A stretch of DNA of 64,000 nt from Rhodospirillales bacterium (GCA_025359905.1 JANYDF010000113.1:1-64000); one strand, 5' to 3'; counted from the first letter of the stretch, positions 15,190-32,334 are shown. Translations and numbers: made by a program. The notes: a model not told the origin generated them from the letters alone.

Positions 15190-17042
15190 CCGGTGGACGC
15201 GCCCAGAATAAGTTCCTGAATCCGCGCTGGGTCGGTCTGTTCCATCACTTTGCGGGCAAAGCGGGCGCAGTCGTCGATATTGGCGGCGCGCACCGCCTGC
15301 TTCACCTTGGGCACGGCAGACGCATTCATACTGAAGCTGCGCAGGCCCAGGCCTAGCAACAGCGGCGTCAGGCGCGGATTGGCGGCCATTTCGCCGCACA
15401 CCGACACCGGCATCCGCAGCCGCAGTGCCGCTTCGGTGGCAAATTGCACCAGCCGCAGCACCGCCGGGTGCAGCGGGTCGTACAGATGCGCCACGTCGCT
15501 CTCGGCGCGATCCACCGCCAACGCGTACATGGTCAGATCGTTGGTGCCGATGGCAAAGAAATCCGCCTCCAGCGCCAGCGCGTCGGCGGACAGCGCGGCG
15601 CCGGGGGTTTCGATCATCACGCCGAGCGGCGGCAGCGGGTCGCGCAACTTCTCGCCCCGGCGGCGCAGGCGGCGCGCCACGCGGTCGTAGATTTCGCGCG
15701 CGGCACGCACCTCGGCGACCGTGGTGACCATCGGCAGCAGCACGCGCACCGGTCCGTGCTGGGCAGCGCGCAGGATGGCGGCAAGTTGCACTTCCAGCAG
15801 CGCCGGTTCGCGCAACAACAACCGGATGCCACGCAGACCCAGCGCCGGGTTGTGGTCGGCGACCTCGGGCACGATGCCCTCGCTATGCAGCGCCTCGATT
15901 TCCTTCTCGCCGCCCCAGTCGAGCACGCGGATGGTCACCGGGTCGCCCGCCATCGCTTCGATAACGGTGCGATAGCTTTCGTACTGGTCGTTTTCGTCGG
16001 GCAGCGTTTCGCGGTTCATGAACAGGAACTCGCTGCGCAGCAGGCCGATCCCGGCGGCGCCAGCTTGCGCGATCAGCGGCAATTCGGCCGGCAGTTCCAA
16101 ATTGGCCTGCAACTCGACGGTCTCGCCATCGGCGGTTTCGGCCGGCAGGCGGCGCAGGCGAGCGTATTTCTGCTGCTGACGCGCAAAGGCGGTCACCGCG
16201 CGGCGCGCCTCGGCCAGCGTTTCCGGCCCCGGATTGACCACCACGCGGCCGGTGGTGCCGTCCACCATGATCGTGTCGCCCGCCTTGGCGGCTTGGCTTA
16301 GGCCAGGGGTGCCAAGCACGGCGGGGACGCCGAGCGCGCGCAGCATAATGGCGGTATGGCCGTCCGAGCCGCCTTCGTCGGTGGCCACACCGGCCAAGCG
16401 CGACGGGTCGAGCAAGGCGGCATCGGCTGGGCGCAGGCTTTCGCACACCAGCACGGCACCTTCCGGCAAACCCTTAAAGCTGCGGAATGGGGCGCGCGTG
16501 AGGTTGCGGATCAAGCGGCGGCAGATCTCGCGCACTTCGTCGGCCCGGCGGCGGCGTCCGGCCGAGTCTTCGCCGGCTGGCATCGCCATGATGGCGGCGG
16601 CGATGGCGTCGGTTTCGTCGGACACGGCGGTCTCGGCGCTCACCAGTGCCTCGGCGATGCGCTTGCGGGCGCCACGCACCAACCGCGAGGGGCCAATCAT
16701 TTGCAAATAGGCGTCGATCAGCGGGGCGATTTCGGCTTGGCTATCCTCAGGCAGCACTCCAAGCCGGGCCCGCAGCTTGGTGAGTTGCTTGCGCGACTGC
16801 ACAATGGCCGCATCCAGGCGCGCCGTCTCGTGGGCAACCTCGGCGGTGTCGATGGCCCTGCGGACGATCTCAGTGGCGGGTTCCGACGCGCCGAACACCG
16901 GCCCGATAGCAATGCCGCCAGAAATGGCCATTCCGGCCAGCACACGCTCCGGCCGCACCGCTTCGTCAGCGGACGAACGGGCGCGCGGGTTACGTTTGGC
17001 CCTGGCGGTCGGGTCGCCCGCCGCGTCCTCAGTTTTGCTCAT
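15186..17042 (-). CDS. ptsI: Phosphoenolpyruvate-protein phosphotransferase (PTS enzyme I)
   Basis: A 618-residue EI that transfers phosphate from PEP to HPr. An N-terminal HPr-binding/phosphohistidine domain (phospho-His H229, codon at 16356-16358) is followed by a PEP-binding TIM barrel with IGLLRSEFLFMNR, FFAIGTNDLTMYALAVDR and SVCGEMAANP. There is no N-terminal GAF domain, so this is not PtsP. The phospho-site reads GGSDGHTAIM instead of the usual GGxTSHxAI. ATG 17042 lies 14 bp inside the end of ptsH; the longer frame overlaps ptsH more deeply. About 30 Arg/Ala-rich residues precede the conserved core. Confidence 0.93.
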   Translation of the reverse strand: MSKTEDAAGDPTARAKRNPRARSSADEAVRPERVLAGMAISGGIAIGPVFGASEPATEIVRRAIDTAEVAHETARLDAAIVQSRKQLTKLRARLGVLPEDSQAEIAPLIDAYLQMIGPSRLVRGARKRIAEALVSAETAVSDETDAIAAAIMAMPAGEDSAGRRRRADEVREICRRLIRNLTRAPFRSFKGLPEGAVLVCESLRPADAALLDPSRLAGVATDEGGSDGHTAIMLRALGVPAVLGTPGLSQAAKAGDTIMVDGTTGRVVVNPGPETLAEARRAVTAFARQQQKYARLRRLPAETADGETVELQANLELPAELPLIAQAGAAGIGLLRSEFLFMNRETLPDENDQYESYRTVIEAMAGDPVTIRVLDWGGEKEIEALHSEGIVPEVADHNPALGLRGIRLLLREPALLEVQLAAILRAAQHGPVRVLLPMVTTVAEVRAAREIYDRVARRLRRRGEKLRDPLPPLGVMIETPGAALSADALALEADFFAIGTNDLTMYALAVDRAESDVAHLYDPLHPAVLRLVQFATEAALRLRMPVSVCGEMAANPRLTPLLLGLGLRSFSMNASAVPKVKQAVRAANIDDCARFARKVMEQTDPARIQELILGASTG

Positions 17043-17349
17043 TGAAGCCGGCTTCGACAAGGGCGCACAGCGCGTCCAGCGCTTCCTTGGCGTCCCAGCC
17101 TTCGGCGCGCAGTTCGATCTGCGTGCCTGGACCGGCACCCAGCATCATCAAACCCATGATTGAGCGAGCCGAAACCGATTGGCCATCGCGTAACACGTCA
17201 ACCGAAGCGCCAAACCGCTCGGCAAGGCCGACAAACTTCGCGGCCGCGCGCGCGTGCAACCCGCGCATATTGCATATCGTGACCACACGAGACAGCACAG
17301 TCAGCGAAGCGCCGGCGGCGAAGGGATCGCTTTCCGCCCCGGAGGTCAT
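17029..17349 (-). CDS. ptsH: HPr phosphocarrier protein
   Basis: A 106-residue HPr. Phosphohistidine H32 sits in NMRGLHARAAAKFV (equivalent to His15), and the regulatory serine S63 sits in SARSIMGLMML (equivalent to Ser46, the HPr kinase target). The presence of both, with hprK four genes away in the cluster, implies dual phosphorylation control. An N-terminal extension of about 17 residues precedes the usual start. It overlaps the EIIA gene by 4 bp and ptsI by 14 bp. Confidence 0.94.
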   Translation of the reverse strand: MTSGAESDPFAAGASLTVLSRVVTICNMRGLHARAAAKFVGLAERFGASVDVLRDGQSVSARSIMGLMMLGAGPGTQIELRAEGWDAKEALDALCALVEAGFNEQN

Positions 17350-17894
17350 CCCCGCGTGCCGTTCAGTTTGACGCCGTTCACCGCCGGCAATGGCGAAAGC
17401 GCTAAAGGGGGCACGACCGCGCCAGCCGATCCACCGTTGACATGGCTTGTGATCGATCCGCTATGCGCGGCCGTCACGGTTTCCGGCGGCATCCGGCAAT
17501 GCGGCAGCACATGCGATGCTGCGGCAATGTATTTGCGCCCAGCGGTCTGCGCGCAGTCCACCGCGTCCGCCAGCGGCAGGTTCGAGCGCACCTTGGCCAG
17601 TTTGACCAGCATTGGCAGGTTCACCCCGGCGATGACTTCCACGCCGCGCCGGTCCATCTGCGAGATGGCGAGGTTGCTTGGAGTGCCGCCGAACATGTCG
17701 GTCAGCAACACCACGCCGTCCCCGGTATCGACCTCGTCGATGCGCGAATGGATTTCGGCGCGCCGTCCTTCCATGTCGTCATCAGGTCCGATGCACACGG
17801 CCGCGCAGTTTCGTTGCGCGCCGACGACATGTTCCATGGCGAGACGAAGCTCTTCGGCAAGACGGCCGTGGGTGACAAGCACTAGACCGATCAT
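17346..17894 (-). CDS. PTS system mannose-type EIIA component (regulatory)
   Basis: A 182-residue EIIA(Man) domain protein. The phosphoacceptor is H9 in LVLVTHGRLAEEL, and TDMFGGTPSNLA and AGVNLPMLVKL are family signatures. No EIIB, IIC or IID gene is nearby, so it is probably an output of a regulatory PTS rather than a sugar transporter. The canonical domain ends near residue 130; about 45 extra Ala/Pro/Val-rich residues follow. It lies 9 bp after rapZ and overlaps ptsH by 4 bp. Confidence 0.92.
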   Translation of the reverse strand: MIGLVLVTHGRLAEELRLAMEHVVGAQRNCAAVCIGPDDDMEGRRAEIHSRIDEVDTGDGVVLLTDMFGGTPSNLAISQMDRRGVEVIAGVNLPMLVKLAKVRSNLPLADAVDCAQTAGRKYIAAASHVLPHCRMPPETVTAAHSGSITSHVNGGSAGAVVPPLALSPLPAVNGVKLNGTRG

Positions 17895-17903
17895 GATGTG
17901 CTC

Positions 17904-18896
17904 TCAGGCCTCCTGCGCCTGAATCGACGGCTGACCGGCACCGCCGCCCGCGCGGGTCAGGGCAGCCGCAGCATGCTGCGCCAGCACGCCTTCGCGGGCG
18001 AGTTCCCGATGGGTCACCGATACGCGCCAGCCAGCTTCCGTTAGCGTCAACGCCAACCTCTCGACGATGTAAACCGACCTGTGACGCCCGCCACTGCACC
18101 CAATCGCGATGGTCGCGTATTTCTTGCCCTCTTGCACGAAGCGAGGCAACAACAGCGCCAACAGGTCGACCAGCTTGGCATAGAACCCAGGAAAATCCGA
18201 GTCGGCCTGCACGTAGGCCCCGACTTCAGGGTCTTGTCCGGTGCGCGGCTTCAAGTGGGAGACATAGTGCGGATTGCGGAGGAAGCGGGCATCCAAAACC
18301 ATGTCCGCCTCGCGGGGCAGACCGGCAGGGAATGCGAAAGACAATAGCGTGACACTGAGTCCGCCCTGCGGTTCATCGGCCGCATCCGGGCCATAGCGGC
18401 GCTCGATCATGCCGCGCAGCGACGGCAGCGGCAGCCCGCTGGTATCGACCACCCAATCGGCTGCGGCATGCAAATTGGCGGTCAGCGCCTGCTCGGCGGC
18501 AATCCCGTCAGTCACCCGGCCGTTCGGGGCCAGCGGATGGCGTCGCCGGGTTTCGGTGAAACGGCGCAGCAAAATAGTTTCGTCGGCCCAGGCGAACACC
18601 AAATCGGCCCGCACATTGGGGATGCCGCGCAGCCGCGCCAGCGTCGCTAGCACGGCGTCGGCATCGAAACCACGGCTGCGCGCATCGACCCCGAACGCCA
18701 GCCGCACCGGCTGGCCGGCCTCGCTGCGGCTGACCATGTCCTCGATCAGCGTCAGCGGCGGGTTGTCGATCGCCTCATAACCCAGATCCTCCAGCGTCCG
18801 CAGAATGGACGCCTTGCCGGCGCCCGACAGTCCGGTGACCAGCACAACCCGCTGGGTCTGCGCCGGCGCGGCCAGCGTGGCTTCAATCCCGCTCAT
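17904..18896 (-). CDS. rapZ: RNase adapter/P-loop protein RapZ family
   Basis: A 330-residue RapZ/YvcJ-family nucleotide-binding protein. N-terminal P-loop GLSGAGKAS (22-30) is followed by LEDLGYEAIDNPPL. The conserved C-terminal domain contains FRNPHYVSHLKPRTG-like sequence and AIGCSGGRHRSVYIVERL. In enterobacteria RapZ senses amino-sugar status through an sRNA pathway; its role in this lineage is less clear. The P-loop Ser/Thr after the lysine is Ala (A29). ATG 18896 overlaps the hprK stop by 4 bp; the upstream 14 residues are not conserved-looking. Confidence 0.92.
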   Translation of the reverse strand: MSGIEATLAAPAQTQRVVLVTGLSGAGKASILRTLEDLGYEAIDNPPLTLIEDMVSRSEAGQPVRLAFGVDARSRGFDADAVLATLARLRGIPNVRADLVFAWADETILLRRFTETRRRHPLAPNGRVTDGIAAEQALTANLHAAADWVVDTSGLPLPSLRGMIERRYGPDAADEPQGGLSVTLLSFAFPAGLPREADMVLDARFLRNPHYVSHLKPRTGQDPEVGAYVQADSDFPGFYAKLVDLLALLLPRFVQEGKKYATIAIGCSGGRHRSVYIVERLALTLTEAGWRVSVTHRELAREGVLAQHAAAALTRAGGGAGQPSIQAQEA

Positions 18897-19354
18897 GCGA
18901 ACGCACCCGCCACCTGAGTTGCGCGCCCGAGCGCACAATCGAGCGCCACGCCGACGATCCGCGCAGCAGCGATCCGGGCCGGATCGACGCTCACGAGCGG
19001 CAAATCGAGGCTGTCATGCCGGGCAGGCGACGGCAGCCGCTCGGTGCCGGCGGCAAGGCGCACCGCCAACCGCAACCGGGCATGCCCCAAATACGGCAAC
19101 CGAAGGATGCCGAGGCCCCGCACCTCTAACAATCCGGCCAATCCGTCAGCGGGGCGCGCAATGCCATCTGAGATTTCCACTCTGTCATCCGCCACCAGCA
19201 TGAACCCAAGATCCAGCAGGCGCAGCACCATGTCCGACTTGCCAGCGCCCGGCGGACCCAGCAGCAACACTCCGGCACCCTCTCGGGCAACGCAACTCGC
19301 GTGCATCTGCATGAGGCGGGAATGTGGCGTGAGGCCGCGCGCAATGAAAGCCAC
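18893..19354 (-). CDS. hprK: HPr kinase/phosphorylase, short alphaproteobacterial form
   Basis: A 153-residue protein corresponding to the C-terminal catalytic half of HprK. Walker A is GPPGAGKSDM, followed by the family stretches FMLVADDRVEI and LEVRGLGI. It phosphorylates or dephosphorylates HPr on the regulatory serine. The N-terminal domain of Gram-positive HprK is absent, as is normal in alphaproteobacteria. The frame starts with GTG at 19354; ATG codons at 19312 and 19306 (just before HASC) are alternatives. An 85-bp gap separates it from chvG. Confidence 0.93.
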   Translation of the reverse strand: MAFIARGLTPHSRLMQMHASCVAREGAGVLLLGPPGAGKSDMVLRLLDLGFMLVADDRVEISDGIARPADGLAGLLEVRGLGILRLPYLGHARLRLAVRLAAGTERLPSPARHDSLDLPLVSVDPARIAAARIVGVALDCALGRATQVAGAFA

Positions 19355-19439
19355 AATCGTGCGGTCACGATGCTGCGAGTGCGAGGAACGCCGAGTGTGG
19401 CGCTGCGGACGCGGTGCGTGGCGGCTGGTTGCCGAAAAT

Positions 19440-21140
19440 TTAGGCGGCGCGCGGTAACCAAACCAGAAAGCGTGCGCCGATCACCCGGCCGCTGTCGTCG
19501 CGGCGATTCTCGGCACTAATGCGGCCTTTCAACGCGGCGACGATCTGGCGGCTGATCGACAGTCCCAGCCCCGAGTGCTGGCCGAAATGCTCGCCCTGCG
19601 GCCGCTCGGAATAGAAGCGGTCGAAGATATGCTCCAGTCGCGCATCAGGGATGCCGGGACCTTCATCCTCGATGCTGATCTCCACCATCGCTCCGACCTC
19701 ACGCACCAGCACGCCGATCCGGCCGTTTTCCGGTGAGAAGGATTGCGCGTTGGCGATCAGGTTGCGCAGCACTTGCACCAGCCGCCCTTCCACCGCCTGC
19801 ACCACGCAGGCCCCCTCGGGCGGGGCAAGTTCAATGCGCGCCTCGCCATCGTCGCGCGTCGCCTCGTTCAACTCGGCCAGCACGGCCAGAATGGCCGCAA
19901 CATCGACCGGTACGGTCGCCATGCGCGACAACTCGGCGTCGATGCGCGAGGCGTCGCTGATGTCGCTGATCAGCCGGTCGAGCCGCCCGACATCCTCGGC
20001 GATGATTGCCAATAGGCGGCGCTGCTTGGCCGGGTCGTCGATGCGGCGCAGCGTTTCGATGGCACTTCGAATCGAGGTCAGCGGGTTCTTGATCTCGTGC
20101 GCCACATCGGCGGCGAACCGCTCGATGGCGTCCATGCGGTCCCACAGCGCGCGCGCCGACTCGGCCAGCGCGCCCGCCAGTTCGCCGATTTCATCGTGGC
20201 GGCGCAGCAGGTTCGGCGCCACGGTGCCGGCCCGCCCGCGCCCTTCGCGCATCTGCTCCGCCGCCCCGGCCAGCCGCAGGATCGGCCGGGCGATGGTCAG
20301 CGACAGATACCAGGACAGCATCACGGTCAGCGCCAACGCCAAGCCGAACAGTGCGAGGATGGAAATGCGAACGGCGAACAGGCTGTTGTCCACCTCGCGC
20401 GCCTCACGCGTCAGCAGCACGATGCCGACGGTGTAGCGGTTGCGCGCAACCGGCTCGGAGACGGTGACCAGCAAGCGGTCGTCGACCGTACGGCGGATAT
20501 AGGCTGGCATCTCGCGGCTTTGGTCGGCGCCGGTCAGCCGCAATTCCTCGCGCACGTCCGGCTGCCAATCCGGGCCGGCGGCCGATGGGCCAAACTCCAG
20601 ATGCAGCGGGTCGCCGCCGTGCGGCAGCCATGCCAGCACGCGGTCGTAGGCGCGCCCGATGGCGCCGATGATCTGGCCGCGCGGGGCAGCGGGCGGCAGC
20701 GGCTCGGTGGTGACCGCCCCGCTGGCACCCTCGCGCACCCGGCTATCGGCAATCAACTGGCCATCCGGTGCGAACAGCCGCGCCTGGGCGCTGGGGGTGG
20801 GTTCGGTCAGCCGCCGCAGCAGCGGGCGGGCGATGTCGGGCACCAGCCGCGGCTTGTCGGCGTCGTCCTCATGCACCGCCGCCTCGCCCAGCGCTCCGGC
20901 ATAGATGCGCGCCTGCTCGCGCAGCGTGGTGACTTCGGCTTCCAGCAACCCGCTTTGGTATTGATCGACATACAGCAACGCCGCCAGCAGCAGCGCCAGC
21001 GGCAGCAGGTTGACCAGCAGGATCCGGCGCAGCAGCGGCGAGACGAACTGCGCCGAGGCAGGCCGCGCCACCTTGGCGGGCCGCGCCACCTTGGCGGGCC
21101 GGCGGATCAACTCCGCTGGCAGGGCGCCGCTGTCGGGCAT
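19440..21140 (-). CDS. chvG: ChvG/ExoS-type sensor histidine kinase
   Basis: A 566-residue inner-membrane kinase. A cytoplasmic N-tail of about 35 residues contains a PAKVAR duplication. It is followed by TM1 (ILLVNLLPLALLLAALL), a periplasmic domain of about 230 residues, TM2, HAMP, the HisKA box FAADVAHEIKNPLTSIRSA, and a HATPase domain with NLIANAQSFSPENG, DEGPGIPD and GLGLSISRQIV. ChvG responds to acid and envelope signals in rhizobia and Agrobacterium. ATG 21140 lies 7 bp after chvI; longer in-frame starts overlap chvI. Confidence 0.93.
   Translation of the reverse strand: MPDSGALPAELIRRPAKVARPAKVARPASAQFVSPLLRRILLVNLLPLALLLAALLYVDQYQSGLLEAEVTTLREQARIYAGALGEAAVHEDDADKPRLVPDIARPLLRRLTEPTPSAQARLFAPDGQLIADSRVREGASGAVTTEPLPPAAPRGQIIGAIGRAYDRVLAWLPHGGDPLHLEFGPSAAGPDWQPDVREELRLTGADQSREMPAYIRRTVDDRLLVTVSEPVARNRYTVGIVLLTREAREVDNSLFAVRISILALFGLALALTVMLSWYLSLTIARPILRLAGAAEQMREGRGRAGTVAPNLLRRHDEIGELAGALAESARALWDRMDAIERFAADVAHEIKNPLTSIRSAIETLRRIDDPAKQRRLLAIIAEDVGRLDRLISDISDASRIDAELSRMATVPVDVAAILAVLAELNEATRDDGEARIELAPPEGACVVQAVEGRLVQVLRNLIANAQSFSPENGRIGVLVREVGAMVEISIEDEGPGIPDARLEHIFDRFYSERPQGEHFGQHSGLGLSISRQIVAALKGRISAENRRDDSGRVIGARFLVWLPRAA
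21063..21098. repeat. 18-bp in-frame tandem duplication in chvG
   Basis: Two identical 18-bp copies of CCGCGCCACCTTGGCGGG lie head to tail. On the minus strand they encode a duplicated PAKVAR in the cytoplasmic N-tail of ChvG, just before the first membrane segment. Confidence 0.9.
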
Positions 21141-21147
21141 GGCCGGG

Positions 21148-21849
21148 TCAGGCTTCCTTGTAGCGGTAGCCGATGCCGTACAGCGTCTCGATCGAGTTGA
21201 ACGTATCGTCGATGCTGCGGAACTTCTTGCGCACCCGCTTGATGTGGCTGTCGATGGTGCGGTCATCGACGTAAATATTATCGCCGTACGCCGCGTCGAT
21301 CAGGTTGTCGCGCGACTTCACCATGCCCGGACGCGCCGCCAGCGCCTTGACCAGCAGAAACTCCGTCACGGTCAGTTGGATGTCGTGGCCCTGCCACATG
21401 CACTGGTGCTTGGTGTCGTCCAGCACCAATTCGCCGCGCACCATGATGCCAGCGGGCGAGGCGCCGGAGCCCTCGGCGCGGCTGTTCTCGTTGCGGCGCA
21501 GCAGCGCGCGGATGCGTTCGATCAGCAGCCGCTGGGAGAATGGTTTTGTGATATAATCATCCGCTCCCAAACGAAGCCCCATCAGCTCATCGACTTCCTC
21601 ATCCTTCGAGGTGAGGAAAATCACCGGCAGGGCGCTGCGCTGGCGCAGGCGTTGCAGCAATTCCATGCCGTCCATGCGTGGCATTTTGATATCCAGCACC
21701 GCCAGATCGACCGGGCGGGCAATGATGCCCTGCAACGCGCTTTCGCCGTCCGTGTAGGTTCGCACCGTGAAGCCTTCCTGTTCCAGCGTCATCGACACGC
21801 TGGTGAGGATGTTGCGGTCGTCGTCGACCAGGGCAATGGTCTGCTTCAT
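21148..21849 (-). CDS. chvI: ChvI-type response regulator (OmpR family)
   Basis: A 233-residue OmpR/PhoB-type regulator. The receiver domain has acidic DDD at 9-11, phosphoacceptor D53 in [11 protein letters not shown] and Lys in ITKPFS. The C-terminal winged helix contains [17 protein letters not shown] and a [15 protein letters not shown] recognition helix. The C-terminus [14 protein letters not shown] is typical of ChvI. It heads the cluster chvI-chvG-hprK-rapZ-EIIA-ptsH-ptsI. An 88-bp divergent region separates it from the next gene. Confidence 0.95.
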
Positions 21850-21937
21850 CGCGGTCCCCCTCGCCGGCGCACGCGCCGCCGGTCCCGGCTATATGGGGGT
21901 GAATTGTGGCGACATGAGGATGGAGGGTGAACGAATT

Positions 21938-22708
21938 ATGGCCGAGGACACCGCAGCAGCCGAACCGCCCGCCCTCGAACCGCCCGCCCTCGATACGCCC
22001 GCCCTCGACCCGCCCGCCCAGGAAACGCCTGCCTGGGTTGCCCGCAAACTGCTGCGCGCCGCCCGGTCCGGCACGCTGGCGAGCAGCACCGGCGGCCAGC
22101 CATTCGCGGCGCTGATCACGCCGGCCTGCGCGCCCGACTTGTCGGTGCTGCTGCTGCTGTCCGAATTGTCCGAGCACACCCGGCATTTGCGCGCCGATCC
22201 GCGCTGCGCGGTGCTGGTGACCGGGCCGGCCGAATGGGCCAACCCGCAAACCGCGCCGCGCGTGACGGTGACCGGACTGGCCGAGCAGATCGACGATGCG
22301 GCGTTGCAGGCGCGCTGGCTGGCCGTGCACCCGTACGCGGCGCTGTACGCCGGGTTCGCCGATTTCCACCTTTGGCGCATCCGCCCCAAGGCCGCCCTGT
22401 TCGTCGGCGGCTTCGCCCGCGCGGCGCGGCTGCGGCTGAGCGACCTGACGCCGGACCCGGCGGCGGTGGCGGCCATTGCCGAGGCGGAGGCCGGGATCAT
22501 CGCGCATTGCAACGAGGACCATGCGGACGCGATGGCGCGGCTCGGACTGACCGCCTCCGGCATCGCGGGCGATTGGCGGATGGTGGCGGCCGACGTGGAC
22601 GGCTGCGATCTGGCGCTAGCGGAGCGCGTGGTGCGGGTGGCGTGGGATGCGCCGGTGTCCGAAGCCGGGGCGGTGCGCGGGGCGTTGGTGCGGATGTTGC
22701 GGCGATAA
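21938..22708 (+). CDS. Pyridoxamine 5'-phosphate oxidase-like / DUF2470 (HugZ-type) protein
   Basis: A 256-residue protein with an N-terminal split-barrel FMN/heme-binding PNPOx-like domain (LRAARSGTLASS, RCAVLVTGP) and a C-terminal DUF2470 domain marked by IIAHCNEDHADAMARLG. This arrangement is seen in HugZ-type heme-related proteins; heme binding is inferred only. ATG 21938 has GGAGG about 11 bp upstream. The N-terminal 30 residues are a Pro/Ala-rich five-residue repeat encoded by a 15-bp DNA repeat. The gene ends 20 bp from the convergent helicase of the candidate defence block. Confidence 0.85.
   Translation: MAEDTAAAEPPALEPPALDTPALDPPAQETPAWVARKLLRAARSGTLASSTGGQPFAALITPACAPDLSVLLLLSELSEHTRHLRADPRCAVLVTGPAEWANPQTAPRVTVTGLAEQIDDAALQARWLAVHPYAALYAGFADFHLWRIRPKAALFVGGFARAARLRLSDLTPDPAAVAAIAEAEAGIIAHCNEDHADAMARLGLTASGIAGDWRMVAADVDGCDLALAERVVRVAWDAPVSEAGAVRGALVRMLRR
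21962..22021. repeat. Four-copy 15-bp tandem repeat at the start of the PNPOx/DUF2470 gene
   Basis: Units at 21962, 21977, 21992 and 22007 share GA(A/T/C)CGCCCGCCC. The first two are identical and the last diverges at its end. They encode EPPAL, EPPAL, DTPAL, DPPAQ, with a degenerate fifth unit ETPAW following. This looks like replication-slippage expansion in a disordered N-terminus. Confidence 0.9.
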
Positions 22709-22728: not shown

Positions 22729-23979
22729 TCATACGCCCACCGCCTCTAGCAGGCCGGAAAGTCCTAGGCGTGACAAGTCCACTGTGTCGATCCCTTCGAC
22801 AAACATATCGAACAGGGCCTGCTTGCGGGCGATAATTCCGGCAATCCGGGATTCAATCGTATCCGGGGTCAGGTATGAAAATACCTGCACGGGCTTGGTT
22901 TGGCCCATTCGGTGGGCACGGTCCTCGGCTTGCGCGGCAGCGGCGGGGGTCCACCACTGGTCAAGCAGAAAGACGACTGAGGCTCCGGTCAGATTGAGTC
23001 CGACGCCCCCGGCGCGCAGCGATAACAAAAGCACGCGGCGATCAGAATCGTTAAGAAATTGAGATATAGCTTGCGCGCGGATGGCTTGGTCCTGCCCGCC
23101 GGTGACGAGCAGCGGCCGCAGCCGGCGCAATCGTTCCGCTGCAGCCATAACACCGAAGGGTGCCTGAACGAACTGGCTGAATACCAAGGATTTTTCTCCC
23201 GCGGACGCGAGAGCGCCCAAGCGAACCGCCAAGTCATCGAGTTTGGCTGACTCGCCGGTTTCTGGATGCGCATTGCATATCTGTTTGAGTCGGAGGATCA
23301 GCTCCAGCACATGGGTGACCTTGACTGCCGCTCCCAGTGACCGCAGCCAGACGATGCCTTCGCGCTCCGCCGCGCAATATGCCGAACGCTGGCGTGGCAG
23401 TAGCGGCGGGGAGAGTTGGAAACGTATCTTTGGCGGTAGATCACGCAACACGTCTGCGCGGCGGCGGCGCAAGAGCATTTCGTCCAACAGCTTACGTAAC
23501 CCAATCATCATGCTGCGGCGGTCGAAGCGGCCCGGTGCCACGAACGCCAGAATGGCGATGAGATCGTCAAGCCGGTTTTCCAGTGGCGTTCCGGTAAGCG
23601 CCCAAGAACTACTGCGGGGCAATCCGCAAACGGCTGCATGGGCATCGGTATTTGTATTCTTGATCCGCTGCGCTTCGTCGGCGATCACGACGCCCCAATG
23701 TCTTTGCCGCGGCCCACCCGGACAGGTTAGCGCGAGATCGGCGACCAACCCTTCGTAACTGACGAGCACGACGTTGGCGTGAGCGAGCCAAGCCGCGCGC
23801 CTTTCGCTGGGTGTGCCGCGCGCTGTTGCAACGCTCAGTTCAGGAGCCCAGGACCGTAGTTCGCTGCGCCACTGCAATAACAAGCCTGCAGGGGCGACAA
23901 TCAGCGCGCCGCCGCCGTCTCCTGCCTGGAATCGAACCCGTAGCGCAGCGATTGCTTCAATGGTTTTTCCCAGCCCCAT
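22729..23979 (-). CDS. SNF2-family DEAD/DEAH helicase-like ATPase, component of the candidate defence block
   Basis: From its only canonical start (ATG 23979) this is 416 residues and begins directly at Walker A, MGLGKT. It has DEAQ (101-104), LTGTPLENR (129-137), and a second RecA lobe with SLRAGGVGLNLTGA and an Arg-finger region EDRAHRMGQTKPVQV. This is the compact SNF2 translocase class, COG0553-like. The same frame stays open upstream to a stop at 24115-24117 and encodes LEWLHPLAPYQIEGVARLV, the normal SNF2 Q-motif region, but contains no ATG, GTG or TTG. The true N-terminus therefore probably extends to about 24114 by a rare start (ATC at 24090, CTG at 24114) or a +1 frameshift from the upstream gene. 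Confidence 0.82.
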   Translation of the reverse strand: MGLGKTIEAIAALRVRFQAGDGGGALIVAPAGLLLQWRSELRSWAPELSVATARGTPSERRAAWLAHANVVLVSYEGLVADLALTCPGGPRQRHWGVVIADEAQRIKNTNTDAHAAVCGLPRSSSWALTGTPLENRLDDLIAILAFVAPGRFDRRSMMIGLRKLLDEMLLRRRRADVLRDLPPKIRFQLSPPLLPRQRSAYCAAEREGIVWLRSLGAAVKVTHVLELILRLKQICNAHPETGESAKLDDLAVRLGALASAGEKSLVFSQFVQAPFGVMAAAERLRRLRPLLVTGGQDQAIRAQAISQFLNDSDRRVLLLSLRAGGVGLNLTGASVVFLLDQWWTPAAAAQAEDRAHRMGQTKPVQVFSYLTPDTIESRIAGIIARKQALFDMFVEGIDTVDLSRLGLSGLLEAVGV

Positions 23980-24079
23980 GTCGTCGGCGAGCAGCAGTGA
24001 GCCGGCGACCAGCCGTGCAACACCTTCGATTTGGTAGGGTGCAAGTGGGTGAAGCCACTCCAGCCCAAATGGTTGAGGA

Positions 24080-25309
24080 TCAACCGGGATCGTCGCTGCC
24101 CTCGGGCAATTCAGTTAGCCGTTGATCCTCGCTGTAGTCCGAGGTGGACGCCTTCTCGATCGGCGTTGTGTGCACACCTTGGATGCGAAGCATATCCCAC
24201 TGGGTAATCCAGCCGCGAATATGATGCCTCATGGTTCGGTTGGCAGTACGTGCCGCGATGTCCGCCTGGGGCGCTTCCCAGCCGTAGGCCTCAGTGTAGC
24301 AGGCGCGAATCTTCTCCTCATGTTGTCGCAGGGCGCTATCGTCGGGCGGTCGCAGCTTACGCGCTTGCTTGATCGCTGCCATCGCCCGCCTAGCCAAGTC
24401 AGCCTGCAGCGGCAAATTGCGAGACTGCAATTGCAGAATCAGCTTTTCGTCGTCTTGCTTAGCGTTGATGACTTGATCATAAAAATCGTCGCTAATGGCC
24501 GAAACAGCAACAAGACCAGGAATGTTTAGATTAGGATACAGGCCAAGCCATTGCGAAAGCTCAGCATAGGCAAGTGCGCGCTGCAATGGGCCATAGCGGC
24601 CGATCAGTTCGGCCTCATCCAACAGAACGACCCAGCCAGCAAAACCAGCTGCCCTGAAAAGTTGTGGCAAAAATCGCATCCGCTGTCGCGCCAGATCGGC
24701 TGGCTTAACAGTGCCAAGATCGAACATCGACTTTGCGCCCGCCTGTTTCAGGGCCGTCCGCAGCGCAGGCAATGGCGGCTTGGCTCCTGCGAGGAATGCT
24801 TCGATTGAATGTCGAAGCGCCGCTTCCATCGTCCTGTTAAGAAGGTACAGGATGGCGGCAAACACCGGTGACATTCCCTGTGCTGGGTCCGATGTCCACA
24901 GTTCGAGTGCCTGAACTGCTCCCTGAATGCGTTGAATGTTGGACAGGGCTGAAGTTATGGCGTCGTCGTTGATATTTTGTGTCCTTGCGTTGCGCACAGC
25001 AGCCGCCAGTGTGATCCCAGGTATCGAAAGCGGCGTCTCCTTGCTGATCACCACGACGCTGACGACGAAGTTGCGCCGACGCGCGATTTCACCAAGGTAA
25101 CCGAGCAAATGGGATTTACCGGTGCCGAAGCCGCCCGCCAGCATCATCCCGGGTTGCGGATAGTCGAATGGGTCTCGCAAACTGCCGATGAAATCGGCTT
25201 CGATGGACGTATTCGGGCTGCCGAGCCGGTGGATTGCCTCACGATTCGGCACACCCGCGCGCAACGCCTCGACGGCTAGCTGGGCTGCCACTCTTGCTGA
25301 ACGCATCAT
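24080..25309 (-). CDS. BrxD/DUF2791-like P-loop ATPase
   Basis: A 409-residue P-loop NTPase resembling the BREX ATP-binding (BrxD, DUF2791) family by eye. The N-terminus has ALRAGVPNREAIHRLG. Walker A is GGFGTGKS (59-66, codons 25112-25135), followed by NFVVSVVVISKETPL. Walker B is WVVLLDEAEL (D231, E232). It overlaps the degenerate paralogue upstream by 4 bp (ATGA), and the open frame of the SNF2 helicase begins within its 3' end. Such ATPases in BREX-type systems are thought to act on DNA with a helicase. Codon use is less GC-biased than flanking genes. The family assignment is from memory of motifs and not searched. Confidence 0.78.
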   Translation of the reverse strand: MMRSARVAAQLAVEALRAGVPNREAIHRLGSPNTSIEADFIGSLRDPFDYPQPGMMLAGGFGTGKSHLLGYLGEIARRRNFVVSVVVISKETPLSIPGITLAAAVRNARTQNINDDAITSALSNIQRIQGAVQALELWTSDPAQGMSPVFAAILYLLNRTMEAALRHSIEAFLAGAKPPLPALRTALKQAGAKSMFDLGTVKPADLARQRMRFLPQLFRAAGFAGWVVLLDEAELIGRYGPLQRALAYAELSQWLGLYPNLNIPGLVAVSAISDDFYDQVINAKQDDEKLILQLQSRNLPLQADLARRAMAAIKQARKLRPPDDSALRQHEEKIRACYTEAYGWEAPQADIAARTANRTMRHHIRGWITQWDMLRIQGVHTTPIEKASTSDYSEDQRLTELPEGSDDPG

Positions 25310-26247
25310 GCGAGCTGTACCAACGGAGCTAAGGGATTATCGCCCTGTCCGGGGCGGACATCGTCCCAAACGCGCATTTTCAGCGCAACATATTGGTCCA
25401 ACGCCCGGCGCGACCCGTCATCAAGAAAGGCCTCATCGGCAATCGCGACCAGCAATATACCTTCCAGCTCATCGGCATCGTCGATCATCTGTCGCAAGAC
25501 TTCGTAGCAATCCATCACGGCTGATGGCGTATAATAGCATCCCCCGTCGGTATCGCGCCGTTCTCGTAATAGTCCACGAATGTCTATCGTTATCATCATG
25601 CCGCGCCCGCCACAGAGGCGCAGCCAATGACATAGTGATTTCAGCATGATCCGAGCATTATAGCGGCCAATTTTGGTTCCTATCTCTGCTGCCTTTACGT
25701 CGCCTATCTTGCGAAGCTGGCCGCGCAGCCAATCGTAAATCGCACCACACAATACATCACGATCATCTGTCAGGTGGCAATCGAGCAGCGAGATCATGGC
25801 GCTGCGGAAATCCTGCGCGAGGTGAACATTGTTCCAGACAACTGTCGTAATCATCTGACTCAATTGATTTCGAAGCAGTCCAGGTGCAACCCCATTTGAT
25901 TCGGCCAGATTGATCAAAGTCATGCGTTGACCCGGACGCGGCCAGCGATAGCCGCTGCTTTCGACAATTCGCTCCAGCTGAAGTTGTGTCAAAGCCGGCC
26001 AATCAACTGCGTTGGCAACAGCAAAAAATAGATACTGGAGCAGGTGCAGCCGCGTTGAGGCAGTGTCGATATGAATACTACTGAGGTTATTCCGTAAAGC
26101 GACTTTCCGGAGTGCACCGATGACCGCTGGCGGCGTGTGGCCGCCAGCTGTTACTGCAAACCGAACCGCGCTGCCGCCAGCGGGAACGAACGAGGCGGCG
26201 TATTCACGCTCGATCAGCTCAATCCAGTCATCTTGTTTGATCGCCAC
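25306..26247 (-). CDS. Degenerate paralogue of the BrxD-like ATPase (predicted non-hydrolysing partner)
   Basis: A 313-residue protein starting with GTG 26247 (AAGG 8-10 bp upstream). Its layout parallels the next gene. Where Walker A is expected it reads TAGGHTPPAVIGAL (33-46) without the GKS core, and at the Walker B position MMITIDIRGL (217-226) without the DE pair. The C-terminal block LEGILLVAIADEAF and VALKMRVWDDVR...NPLAPLVQL resembles C-terminal sequence of BREX-type ATP-binding proteins. I infer an ATPase-fold partner that does not hydrolyse ATP. It is 9 bp after the first gene of the block. Confidence 0.68.
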   Translation of the reverse strand: MAIKQDDWIELIEREYAASFVPAGGSAVRFAVTAGGHTPPAVIGALRKVALRNNLSSIHIDTASTRLHLLQYLFFAVANAVDWPALTQLQLERIVESSGYRWPRPGQRMTLINLAESNGVAPGLLRNQLSQMITTVVWNNVHLAQDFRSAMISLLDCHLTDDRDVLCGAIYDWLRGQLRKIGDVKAAEIGTKIGRYNARIMLKSLCHWLRLCGGRGMMITIDIRGLLRERRDTDGGCYYTPSAVMDCYEVLRQMIDDADELEGILLVAIADEAFLDDGSRRALDQYVALKMRVWDDVRPGQGDNPLAPLVQLA

Positions 26248-26256
26248 GGGGCTGCC

Positions 26257-27045
26257 TTAGGAGTTTTCCGGTAACAAGAACTGGACACCGACGAAGATAT
26301 GTTGCGTGCCGTCTTCATCGTAGGCGGTGATGCGTTCTGGTCCTTTGCTTCCGGTTGCCGCAGCAAACGCGAATCCGAAACCGTCCTTGGTCCGGATATC
26401 CGGCGCGCGGTTTAAACGGAGCAAATCGCAAGCAAACGCCTCTCTTGGGTATTCCGCAGCTGCCATTGGCAACAAAGTCAACAAGGCGTGAATGCGTGAT
26501 AGCGATACAACGGGGCCGTCGGCGGTGTTGCTTGGCGTCCAGGACGACGCCAGGTGCTGGTAAGCCCGCAAGATCTGTTCTAGAAAACCGGAGGCATTGA
26601 ATTTGGCGCCCTGCTGCGCCGCCTTTAAGCTACGGACGAGGTACGAAGGACGAATTGCACGTAGAGCCTTGCGCCCGATCCGTACCGCCGGTAACCGGGG
26701 TTCGAGTTTTAACAAAAATGGAAATGCACTTAACCGTCCGTCTCGATCCATAATGGTCACACCTTGGCGGGCAGCTTCAGCCTGCAACTCCTGCACGTAA
26801 GAACCATCCGACATCGACTGCGCAATGTCAAAAGGAGCACTGCCAGATAATTCCGTCAACGCGCGACTCAGACGTTCAGCGTCGTCGGGTGCTTGGGCAA
26901 TATGCCCCACCATTGCGTTGATGTCGCCAAGTGTGGCATTCCTTCGTGCACGTGAGAGACGGCTTAGGACCGCCTTGGCTTGGCGTTCGGCAGCCGCAAT
27001 CCGGGTCTCCATTTGTTGGAGAGAGGCCTCAAAAGTTTCGGTCAT
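26257..27045 (-). CDS. Unrecognised coiled-coil protein, first gene of the candidate defence block
   Basis: A 262-residue protein I do not recognise. Residues 5-36 are a heptad-rich, Ala/Arg/Glu-rich coiled coil (TFEASLQQMETRIAAAERQ). A mixed alpha/beta region follows, and the C-terminus FVGVQFLLPENS looks like a beta-strand end. There are no membrane segments, signal or enzyme motif. ATG 27045 has GGTGGG 9 bp upstream; ATG 27054 is nearly adjacent to that site and is the alternative. It is the likely first cistron and may be an adaptor or target-recognition subunit (inference only). Confidence 0.6.
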   Translation of the reverse strand: MTETFEASLQQMETRIAAAERQAKAVLSRLSRARRNATLGDINAMVGHIAQAPDDAERLSRALTELSGSAPFDIAQSMSDGSYVQELQAEAARQGVTIMDRDGRLSAFPFLLKLEPRLPAVRIGRKALRAIRPSYLVRSLKAAQQGAKFNASGFLEQILRAYQHLASSWTPSNTADGPVVSLSRIHALLTLLPMAAAEYPREAFACDLLRLNRAPDIRTKDGFGFAFAAATGSKGPERITAYDEDGTQHIFVGVQFLLPENS

Positions 27046-27102
27046 CGAGGTCATCCCACCGGTTCTTGTTAAGCGAATCGATAATCTTGCGTTAGCACAC
27101 CA

Positions 27103-31342: not shown

Positions 31343-31419
31343 GGACCCGTAGCTCAGCTGGATAGAGCGTTGCCCTCCGAAGGCAAAGGTCGCACGTTCG
31401 AATCGTGTCGGGTCCGCCA
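31343..31419 (+). tRNA. tRNA-Arg (anticodon CCG)
   Basis: A cloverleaf of 77 nt including encoded CCA. Acceptor GGACCCG pairs with CGGGTCC, the D arm has AGCTCAGCTGGATAGAGC, the anticodon stem TTGCC/GGCAA encloses loop CTCCGAA (anticodon CCG), and the T arm has GTTCGAATC. It decodes CGG arginine codons, which are frequent in this GC-rich genome. Confidence 0.96.

Positions 31420-32258: not shown

Positions 32259-32334
<76 letters not shown>

What the first reader, a model, noticed from the sequence alone, without database searches (positions are those of the whole stretch)
22729..27054. Candidate four-gene defence or DNA-processing system beside polA
Four tightly packed minus-strand genes encode an unknown coiled-coil protein, a degenerate ATPase-like protein, an intact BrxD/DUF2791-like ATPase and a compact SNF2 helicase. 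Spacing is 9 bp, then a 4-bp overlap, then overlapping frames, so they act as one unit. A DUF2791-type ATPase plus helicase recalls parts of BREX systems, but no PglX, PglZ, BrxC or methylase is present. The set does not match a defence system I can name.
Basis: partly seen in the sequence, partly recalled or inferred. Interest (0 to 1): 0.85.

Follow-up and report, generated by a model that had tools for sequence, protein, structure and literature searches.

The report
BrxD-type ATPase and SNF2 helicase operon
Next to the DNA polymerase I gene sits a mobile four-gene set (an unknown DNA-binding-like protein, a dead and a live ATPase of the kind used in BREX and Shango phage defence, and a small DNA motor) that matches no named defence system tested here and is probably a new relative of those systems, although no function has been tested.

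Summary
Four minus-strand genes at 22729-27054 encode A (265 aa, no known family), B (313 aa, BrxC/BrxD family without Walker A), C (409 aa, intact BrxD-like ATPase) and D (about 450 aa, compact SNF2). The A-B-C trio is conserved in order in 27 of 29 family loci fetched; the exceptions are a contig cut and one A fragment. It is patchy: 31 of 397 family genomes. The most divergent relatives also have A-B-C-D, so four genes look ancestral. D is nevertheless separable: absent or decayed at about 17 loci where A-B-C persists (under purifying selection in the pairs tested), and solitary in four genomes. No PADLOC system matches. The nearest relatives are the BrxD-BrxHI pair of type-2 BREX and the SngB-SngC pair of Shango. 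A cousin operon (A-like, two BrxD, BrxHI-type helicase) lies on plasmids of Desulfomonile and Aulosira, in Aulosira directly after a type-2 BREX. In Acetobacteraceae the flanks are housekeeping genes, not defence islands, but insertion sites vary. Best reading: a horizontally moving anti-invader loader-motor module, a new variant of the BrxD/SngB kind. A defence role is inferred, not shown.

The parts
26257..27054 (-). Gene A, 265 aa: N-terminal helical hairpin (residues 8-71), five short strands (102-131), helices, and a C-terminal helix-helix-helix-strand-strand unit (185-260) that reads like a winged helix
   Evidence: the winged-helix reading is from the order of DSSP elements only
25306..26247 (-). 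Gene B, 313 aa: BrxC/BrxD-family protein with ORC/Cdc6-type AAA+ fold but no Walker A and no catalytic Walker B acid
24080..25309 (-). Gene C, 409 aa: BrxD-like AAA+ ATPase with intact Walker A (GGFGTGKSH) and Walker B (LLDEAELIGRY)
22729..24114 (-). Gene D, about 450-460 aa: compact SNF2 helicase without N-terminal extension; start codon uncertain (open frame from 24114; the first ATG at 23979 would cut off the conserved N-terminal motif)

Best explanation
A-B-C-D is a horizontally moving anti-invader module that works like the BrxD-BrxHI pair of type-2 BREX and the SngB-SngC pair of Shango: an ORC/Cdc6-type AAA+ loader that places a superfamily 2 motor on DNA. B (dead) and C (live) form a mixed AAA+ assembly in which only C binds and hydrolyses ATP and B has a structural, sensing or arginine-finger role (invariant R281 and R292, near-invariant R298). 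A, with its coiled coil and winged-helix-like end, is the DNA-binding or scaffold subunit and takes the place that TerB-containing SngA has in Shango. ATP binding by C lets the complex clamp on target DNA and load D, which translocates along duplex DNA and stalls or strips replication and transcription of the invader. No nuclease domain was found, so I expect a block rather than cutting. D is a replaceable motor: where it is gone, A-B-C either acts as a clamp by itself or uses another motor. Shown here: gene content, families, intact and dead motifs, predicted fold of B, conserved order, patchy distribution, separability of D, purifying selection. Inferred: complex formation, DNA binding by A, loading, target choice, and the anti-invader role.
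For: B and C are BrxC_BrxD members. B is predicted to fold like ORC2/Cdc6 (Z 11.8) and BREX BrxC (9zll, Z 10.0). BrxD has been called an ORC-Cdc6 ATPase that may load BrxHI (PMC12839542). Shango (TerB, ATPase, helicase) was tested as anti-phage (PMC10250203). The A-B-C order is kept across genera, with full A-B-C-D in three distant lineages. A cousin operon, A-like + BrxD + BrxD + BrxHI/SngC-type helicase, is on plasmids of Desulfomonile and Aulosira, in the latter directly after PglZ-BrxD-BrxHI. B matches the first cousin ATPase (4e-14) and not the second (0.38); C matches both; A matches the cousin's first protein above all 60 shuffles and all 132 unrelated proteins. Mobility: 31 of 397 genomes, divergent versions in one genus, opposite insertions beside pdxJ, GC3 of 0.56-0.65 in the window operon against 0.82-0.87 for clear flanking genes.
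Against: No phage or plasmid assay exists. Acetobacteraceae copies do not lie in defence islands. D is absent or decayed at about 17 loci, and solitary in four genomes with dN/dS of 0.03-0.21, so D has a role of its own and A-B-C does not need it. The tie between A and the cousin's first protein is weak on its own (hhalign E 0.0013, probability 18%). The helicase type differs from BREX type 2 and Shango (SNF2 against DEAD/Ski2-like). No match to A on plasmids or viral contigs, and none to C in phages or viral contigs.
Confidence: 0.5

Rival explanations
1. A chromosomal DNA-processing complex, not defence: A-B-C loads D or another SNF2 protein at stalled forks, DNA ends or stalled RNA polymerase, and is kept by some lineages for genome maintenance.
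For: Flanks are housekeeping genes; A, B and C are under steady purifying selection (dN/dS 0.12-0.37); solitary D is strongly conserved; in genus g1 the operon lies beside polA in both genomes.
Against: Patchy distribution, 31 of 397 genomes; divergent versions inside one genus; opposite insertions at one site; cousin operon on plasmids and next to BREX.
Confidence: 0.27
2. A-B-C alone is the functional system, and D is an independent SNF2 gene that joins or leaves the operon, as a modular motor or an accessory with another function.
For: A-B-C without D at 14 loci and with decayed D at three; solitary D in four genomes; purifying selection on each alone.
Against: D follows C in the outermost relatives L107, L083 and L085 and at about 14 loci in all, usually overlapping C or within about 120 bases of it; the cousin operon also has a helicase gene in fourth place.
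Confidence: 0.15
3. Remnant or accessory of a BREX system.
For: BrxC_BrxD family of B and C; the Aulosira cousin lies beside a type-2 BREX.
Against: No further BrxC/BrxD in the whole assembly; no PglZ or PglX model among 121 neighbours of homologous loci; B and C score 33-42 bits on NCBIfam BrxD, whose cut-off is 350.
Confidence: 0.04
4. Helper module of a transposon (TnsC-like target selector).
For: B also aligns to TnsC (Z 9.5); insertions recur beside pdxJ.
Against: No transposase or integrase was seen conserved with A-B-C; TnsC is one of many AAA+ matches.
Confidence: 0.04

Closest known systems
Shango (SngA TerB, SngB ATPase, SngC helicase)
   Same: A BrxD-family ATPase gene directly before a helicase gene, preceded by a gene for a protein without an evident enzyme domain; often on mobile elements
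   Different: No TerB protein, two ATPases of which one is dead, SNF2 instead of the SngC helicase; C scores 17 bits on the SngB model where a true SngB scores 614
BrxD-BrxHI pair of type-2 BREX (Pgl)
   Same: BrxD-family ATPase coupled to a superfamily 2 helicase; a loader role has been proposed for BrxD (PMC12839542)
   Different: No PglX, PglZ, PglW or BrxC seen; SNF2 rather than Ski2-like helicase; extra A and B
Unnamed four-gene operon of Desulfomonile tiedjei pDESTI.01 and Aulosira laxa plasmid3
   Same: Order A-like, BrxD-like 1, BrxD-like 2, helicase; B is specifically close to BrxD-like 1
   Different: Both ATPases intact; helicase of BrxHI/SngC type; A only weakly similar
BrxB, the Walker-less STAND/ORC-Cdc6 protein of BREX
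   Same: Dead AAA+ partner beside a live BrxC-type ATPase (PMC12839542)
   Different: B is well conserved and belongs to the BrxC/BrxD Pfam family; BrxB is described as fast-evolving

Membership tests
Shango | SngA protein with TerB domains | tested here: not met
   A has no PADLOC or TerB Pfam match, alone or over 31 homologues, and no hhalign match to a true SngA
Shango | SngB-type ATPase | tested here: inconclusive
   C matches SngB at 17 bits, E 5e-4, against 614 bits for a true SngB
Shango | SngC-type DEAD/DEAH helicase | tested here: not met
   D is SNF2 (Pfam 1.1e-43); SngC is not among its 25 best PADLOC models
BREX (any type) | BrxC/PglY large ATPase | tested here: not met
   PF10923 finds only B and C in the whole assembly
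BREX (any type) | PglX methylase and PglZ in the locus | tested here: inconclusive
   No such model among 121 genes flanking homologous loci, but the window's own flanks and the rest of the genome were not scanned with these models
BREX type 2 accessory pair BrxD-BrxHI | BrxD at equivalog level plus BrxHI | tested here: not met
   33 and 42 bits against a cut-off of 350; D matches BrxHI/BrxHII models only over the helicase core
Zorya type I | ZorA, ZorB, ZorC with ZorD | tested here: not met
   D matches only the helicase part of ZorD; A, B and C match no Zor model
ORC/Cdc6-type AAA+ fold (B) | AAA+ core fold | tested here: met
   Predicted model against ORC2 1w5t Z 11.8, rmsd 3.2, 168 aligned; BrxC 9zll Z 10.0, rmsd 4.3, 206 aligned
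BrxC/BrxD-family AAA+ ATPase (C) | Walker A and Walker B | tested here: met
   Invariant in 26 aligned sequences
Anti-phage defence system (general) | Protects cells from phage or plasmids | not testable with these tools
   Needs an assay
Anti-phage defence system (general) | Enrichment beside other defence genes | tested here: not met
   Hits to nine PADLOC models, each in one or two of 121 neighbours, some of them general families; but the Aulosira cousin is beside BREX

The most novel reading that the evidence does not exclude
A-B-C is a new stand-alone anti-invader core, built from a dead and a live BrxD-type ATPase and a DNA-binding subunit of unreported family, that can act with or without an SNF2 motor. 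With the Desulfomonile/Aulosira operons it forms a previously unnamed class beside BREX and Shango, in which the loader and not the motor is the constant part.
Probability: 0.4. Interest if true: 0.75.

Novelty: new variant of a known kind. Interest (0 to 1): 0.55.

Why it matters
How BrxD-type ATPases work with helicases in BREX type 2 and Shango is not known. A small set in which one ATPase is dead, the motor is compact, and natural variants lack the motor altogether would allow the loader and the motor to be tested apart. It also points to an unnamed operon class on plasmids that a model-based defence finder would miss, because its first protein matches no PADLOC model.

Tried and rejected
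Shango membership: rejected (A has no TerB, D is not SngC). BREX membership: rejected for BrxC and BrxD level. Zorya, DISARM and Dpd matches of D: helicase core only. Fold search with A found only coiled-coil matches such as PspA (Z 9.3 over residues 1-75), which a helical hairpin can give by itself; the C-terminal part was hardly tested because the hairpin fills the list. PspA/IM30 hit in Pfam: 14 bits, under the cut-off, coiled coil only. Viral contigs and phages gave no relatives of A or C. Plasmid searches with A and B gave nothing; C gave only the Desulfomonile cousin. Compositional foreignness is not general: the window copy is low in GC3, but over 25 loci the mean GC difference is near zero. 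A search for polA used a range out of frame and is not used. No promoter-like site and only two terminator-like patterns, fewer than in shuffles; no Rfam match in the operon. Literature: no paper in the library holds the word DUF2791; none of the papers found describes this gene set.

Full report
Observation. The four frames are real and lie as stated. A (26257-27054) and B (25306-26247) are 9 bp apart, B and C (24080-25309) overlap by 4 bp, and the frame of D (to 22729) overlaps the end of C. Pfam places B and C in BrxC_BrxD (1.5e-10, 8.7e-14) and D in SNF2; A has no family. NCBIfam and PADLOC give only weak BrxD matches for B and C (33-42 bits on NCBIfam against a cut-off of 350). D has an odd start: its first ATG (23979) is inside the Walker A region, and the upstream frame, which carries the conserved FGLxW...YQ motif, holds no ATG, GTG or TTG. 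In the sister species a TTG lies just ahead of that motif.

Conservation. In the family of the window genome (Acetobacteraceae by the names of the related contigs) A has relatives in 31 of 397 genomes and 17 of 102 genera. Of 29 loci fetched, B follows A in 28 and C follows B in 27; the missing C of one locus lies on another contig, so only one A fragment is a true exception. C keeps Walker A and B in all 26 aligned sequences; B lacks both in all 26 of its own. A scan of GTDB genomes, limited to one short peptide pattern, gave 29 loci, mostly labelled Acetobacteraceae or Proteobacteria MAGs, plus a contig labelled Deltaproteobacteria (L083) and one labelled Hyphomicrobiales (L085); both have A-B-C-D, as has a genome of another family of the class (L107) with only 31-37% identity in A, B and C. 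Outside the family A is rare: one further genome of 385 in the class sample.

The motor is separable. D is intact at about 14 loci (one of them cut by a contig end), frameshifted at one (L036), decayed at three (L037, L056, L057) and absent with ample sequence downstream at 14. In those D-less genomes that were searched whole, no other D orthologue was found, only distant SNF2 proteins. On a tree of A+B+C, D is present in the outermost branches and missing in several inner ones, so loss is the simpler reading. A, B and C still evolve under constraint without D (dN/dS 0.12-0.37 over the pairs tested). Conversely, four genomes of genus g34 have an intact D (69-70% identical) with no A, B or C nearby and strong constraint. 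So 'one unit' fits the ancestral order but is not obligatory.

Mobility and context. Versions from different clades occur within one genus (g101, g123, g116). In genus g101 an A-B-C-D copy and a divergent A-B-C copy lie on the same side of pdxJ in opposite orientation; a relative has a histidine kinase gene in that interval instead. In the window the operon has GC3 of 0.56-0.65 against 0.82-0.87 in clear flanking genes; A-D are 50-70% identical to those of the sister species where polA is 90%, and the flank beyond D is inverted between the two species. Across loci there is no general GC difference. Flanking genes are mostly core metabolism; only a few of 121 hit PADLOC models. This speaks against classical defence islands here.

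Kinship. Plasmid searches led to Desulfomonile tiedjei pDESTI.01 and Aulosira laxa plasmid3, which carry a 279-aa unknown protein, two BrxD-like ATPases and a BrxHI/SngC-type helicase in this order. In Aulosira the set directly follows PglZ, BrxD and BrxHI of a type-2 BREX. By profile comparison B is close to the first of these ATPases (4e-14) and not the second (0.38), C to both (1e-17, 1e-16). The 279-aa pair matches A over 140 columns with score 31, above 60 column shuffles (maximum 19.4) and 132 unrelated proteins (maximum 25.4), but with hhalign probability of only 18%; I call this probable, not proven. The other plasmid relatives examined are annotated as a TerB protein, an ATPase and a helicase, the layout of Shango; a chromosomal one was confirmed by PADLOC SngA, SngB and SngC.

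Structure. A is predicted with pLDDT 91: helical hairpin, five short strands, helices, then three helices and strands in winged-helix order; no PDB match covers the C-terminal part. B is predicted with pLDDT 92 and aligns to ORC2 (Z 11.8), Cdc6/Orc1 (Z 10.0), BREX BrxC (Z 10.0) and RdrA (Z 9.3). Two invariant arginines (R281, R292) and a near-invariant one (R298) follow the fourth core strand; an arginine-finger role is inference.

Mechanism. I favour a loader-motor module: A binds or scaffolds, B plus C form a mixed AAA+ assembly, and D is the motor. Rakesh and Krishnan (PMC12839542) propose that BrxD may load BrxHI; the paper on Pseudomonas core defence hotspots (PMC10250203) shows that Shango has anti-phage activity. 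No nuclease domain was found in A-D, so a block is more likely than cutting. The anti-invader role itself is inferred from kinship and mobility; a genome-maintenance role remains a serious rival.

Novelty. It fails tested defining features of Shango, BREX and Zorya, and I found no paper describing it. It is best called a new variant of the BrxD/SngB ATPase-helicase kind.

Noticed in passing
window 24090-24117: D has no ATG, GTG or TTG start ahead of its conserved N-terminal motif; the sister species has a TTG there. Non-standard start, frameshift from C, or assembly error.
   Followed up: partly
window 15198-22186 against L032: About 7 kb beyond D is present in the sister species at 81% identity but inverted, so the operon sits at an inversion breakpoint.
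   Followed up: partly
L148, L149, L150, L151: Solitary, intact D homologues (69-70% identity) without A, B or C in genus g34, among metabolic genes.
   Followed up: partly
L107:4006-5970 (-): The most divergent D has an extra N-terminal stretch of about 190 residues without a Pfam or PADLOC match.
   Followed up: partly
L132:654-12548: Aulosira laxa plasmid3 has part of a type-2 BREX (PglZ, BrxD, BrxHI) followed directly by an A-like, BrxD, BrxD, BrxHI-type operon.
   Followed up: yes
L034, L043, L051, L146, L147 beside pdxJ: Variable interval next to pdxJ in genus g101: A-B-C-D, inverted A-B-C, a histidine kinase, or a small transposase-like gene.
   Followed up: partly
flanks of L031-L059: One neighbour matches HEC-07 very strongly (2.9e-181) and single neighbours match mad2 and mad3 models; not traced to their loci.
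   Followed up: no
window 31343-31419 and 32259-32334: tRNA-Arg (CCG) and tRNA-Lys (CTT) genes about 4-5 kb from the operon.
   Followed up: no
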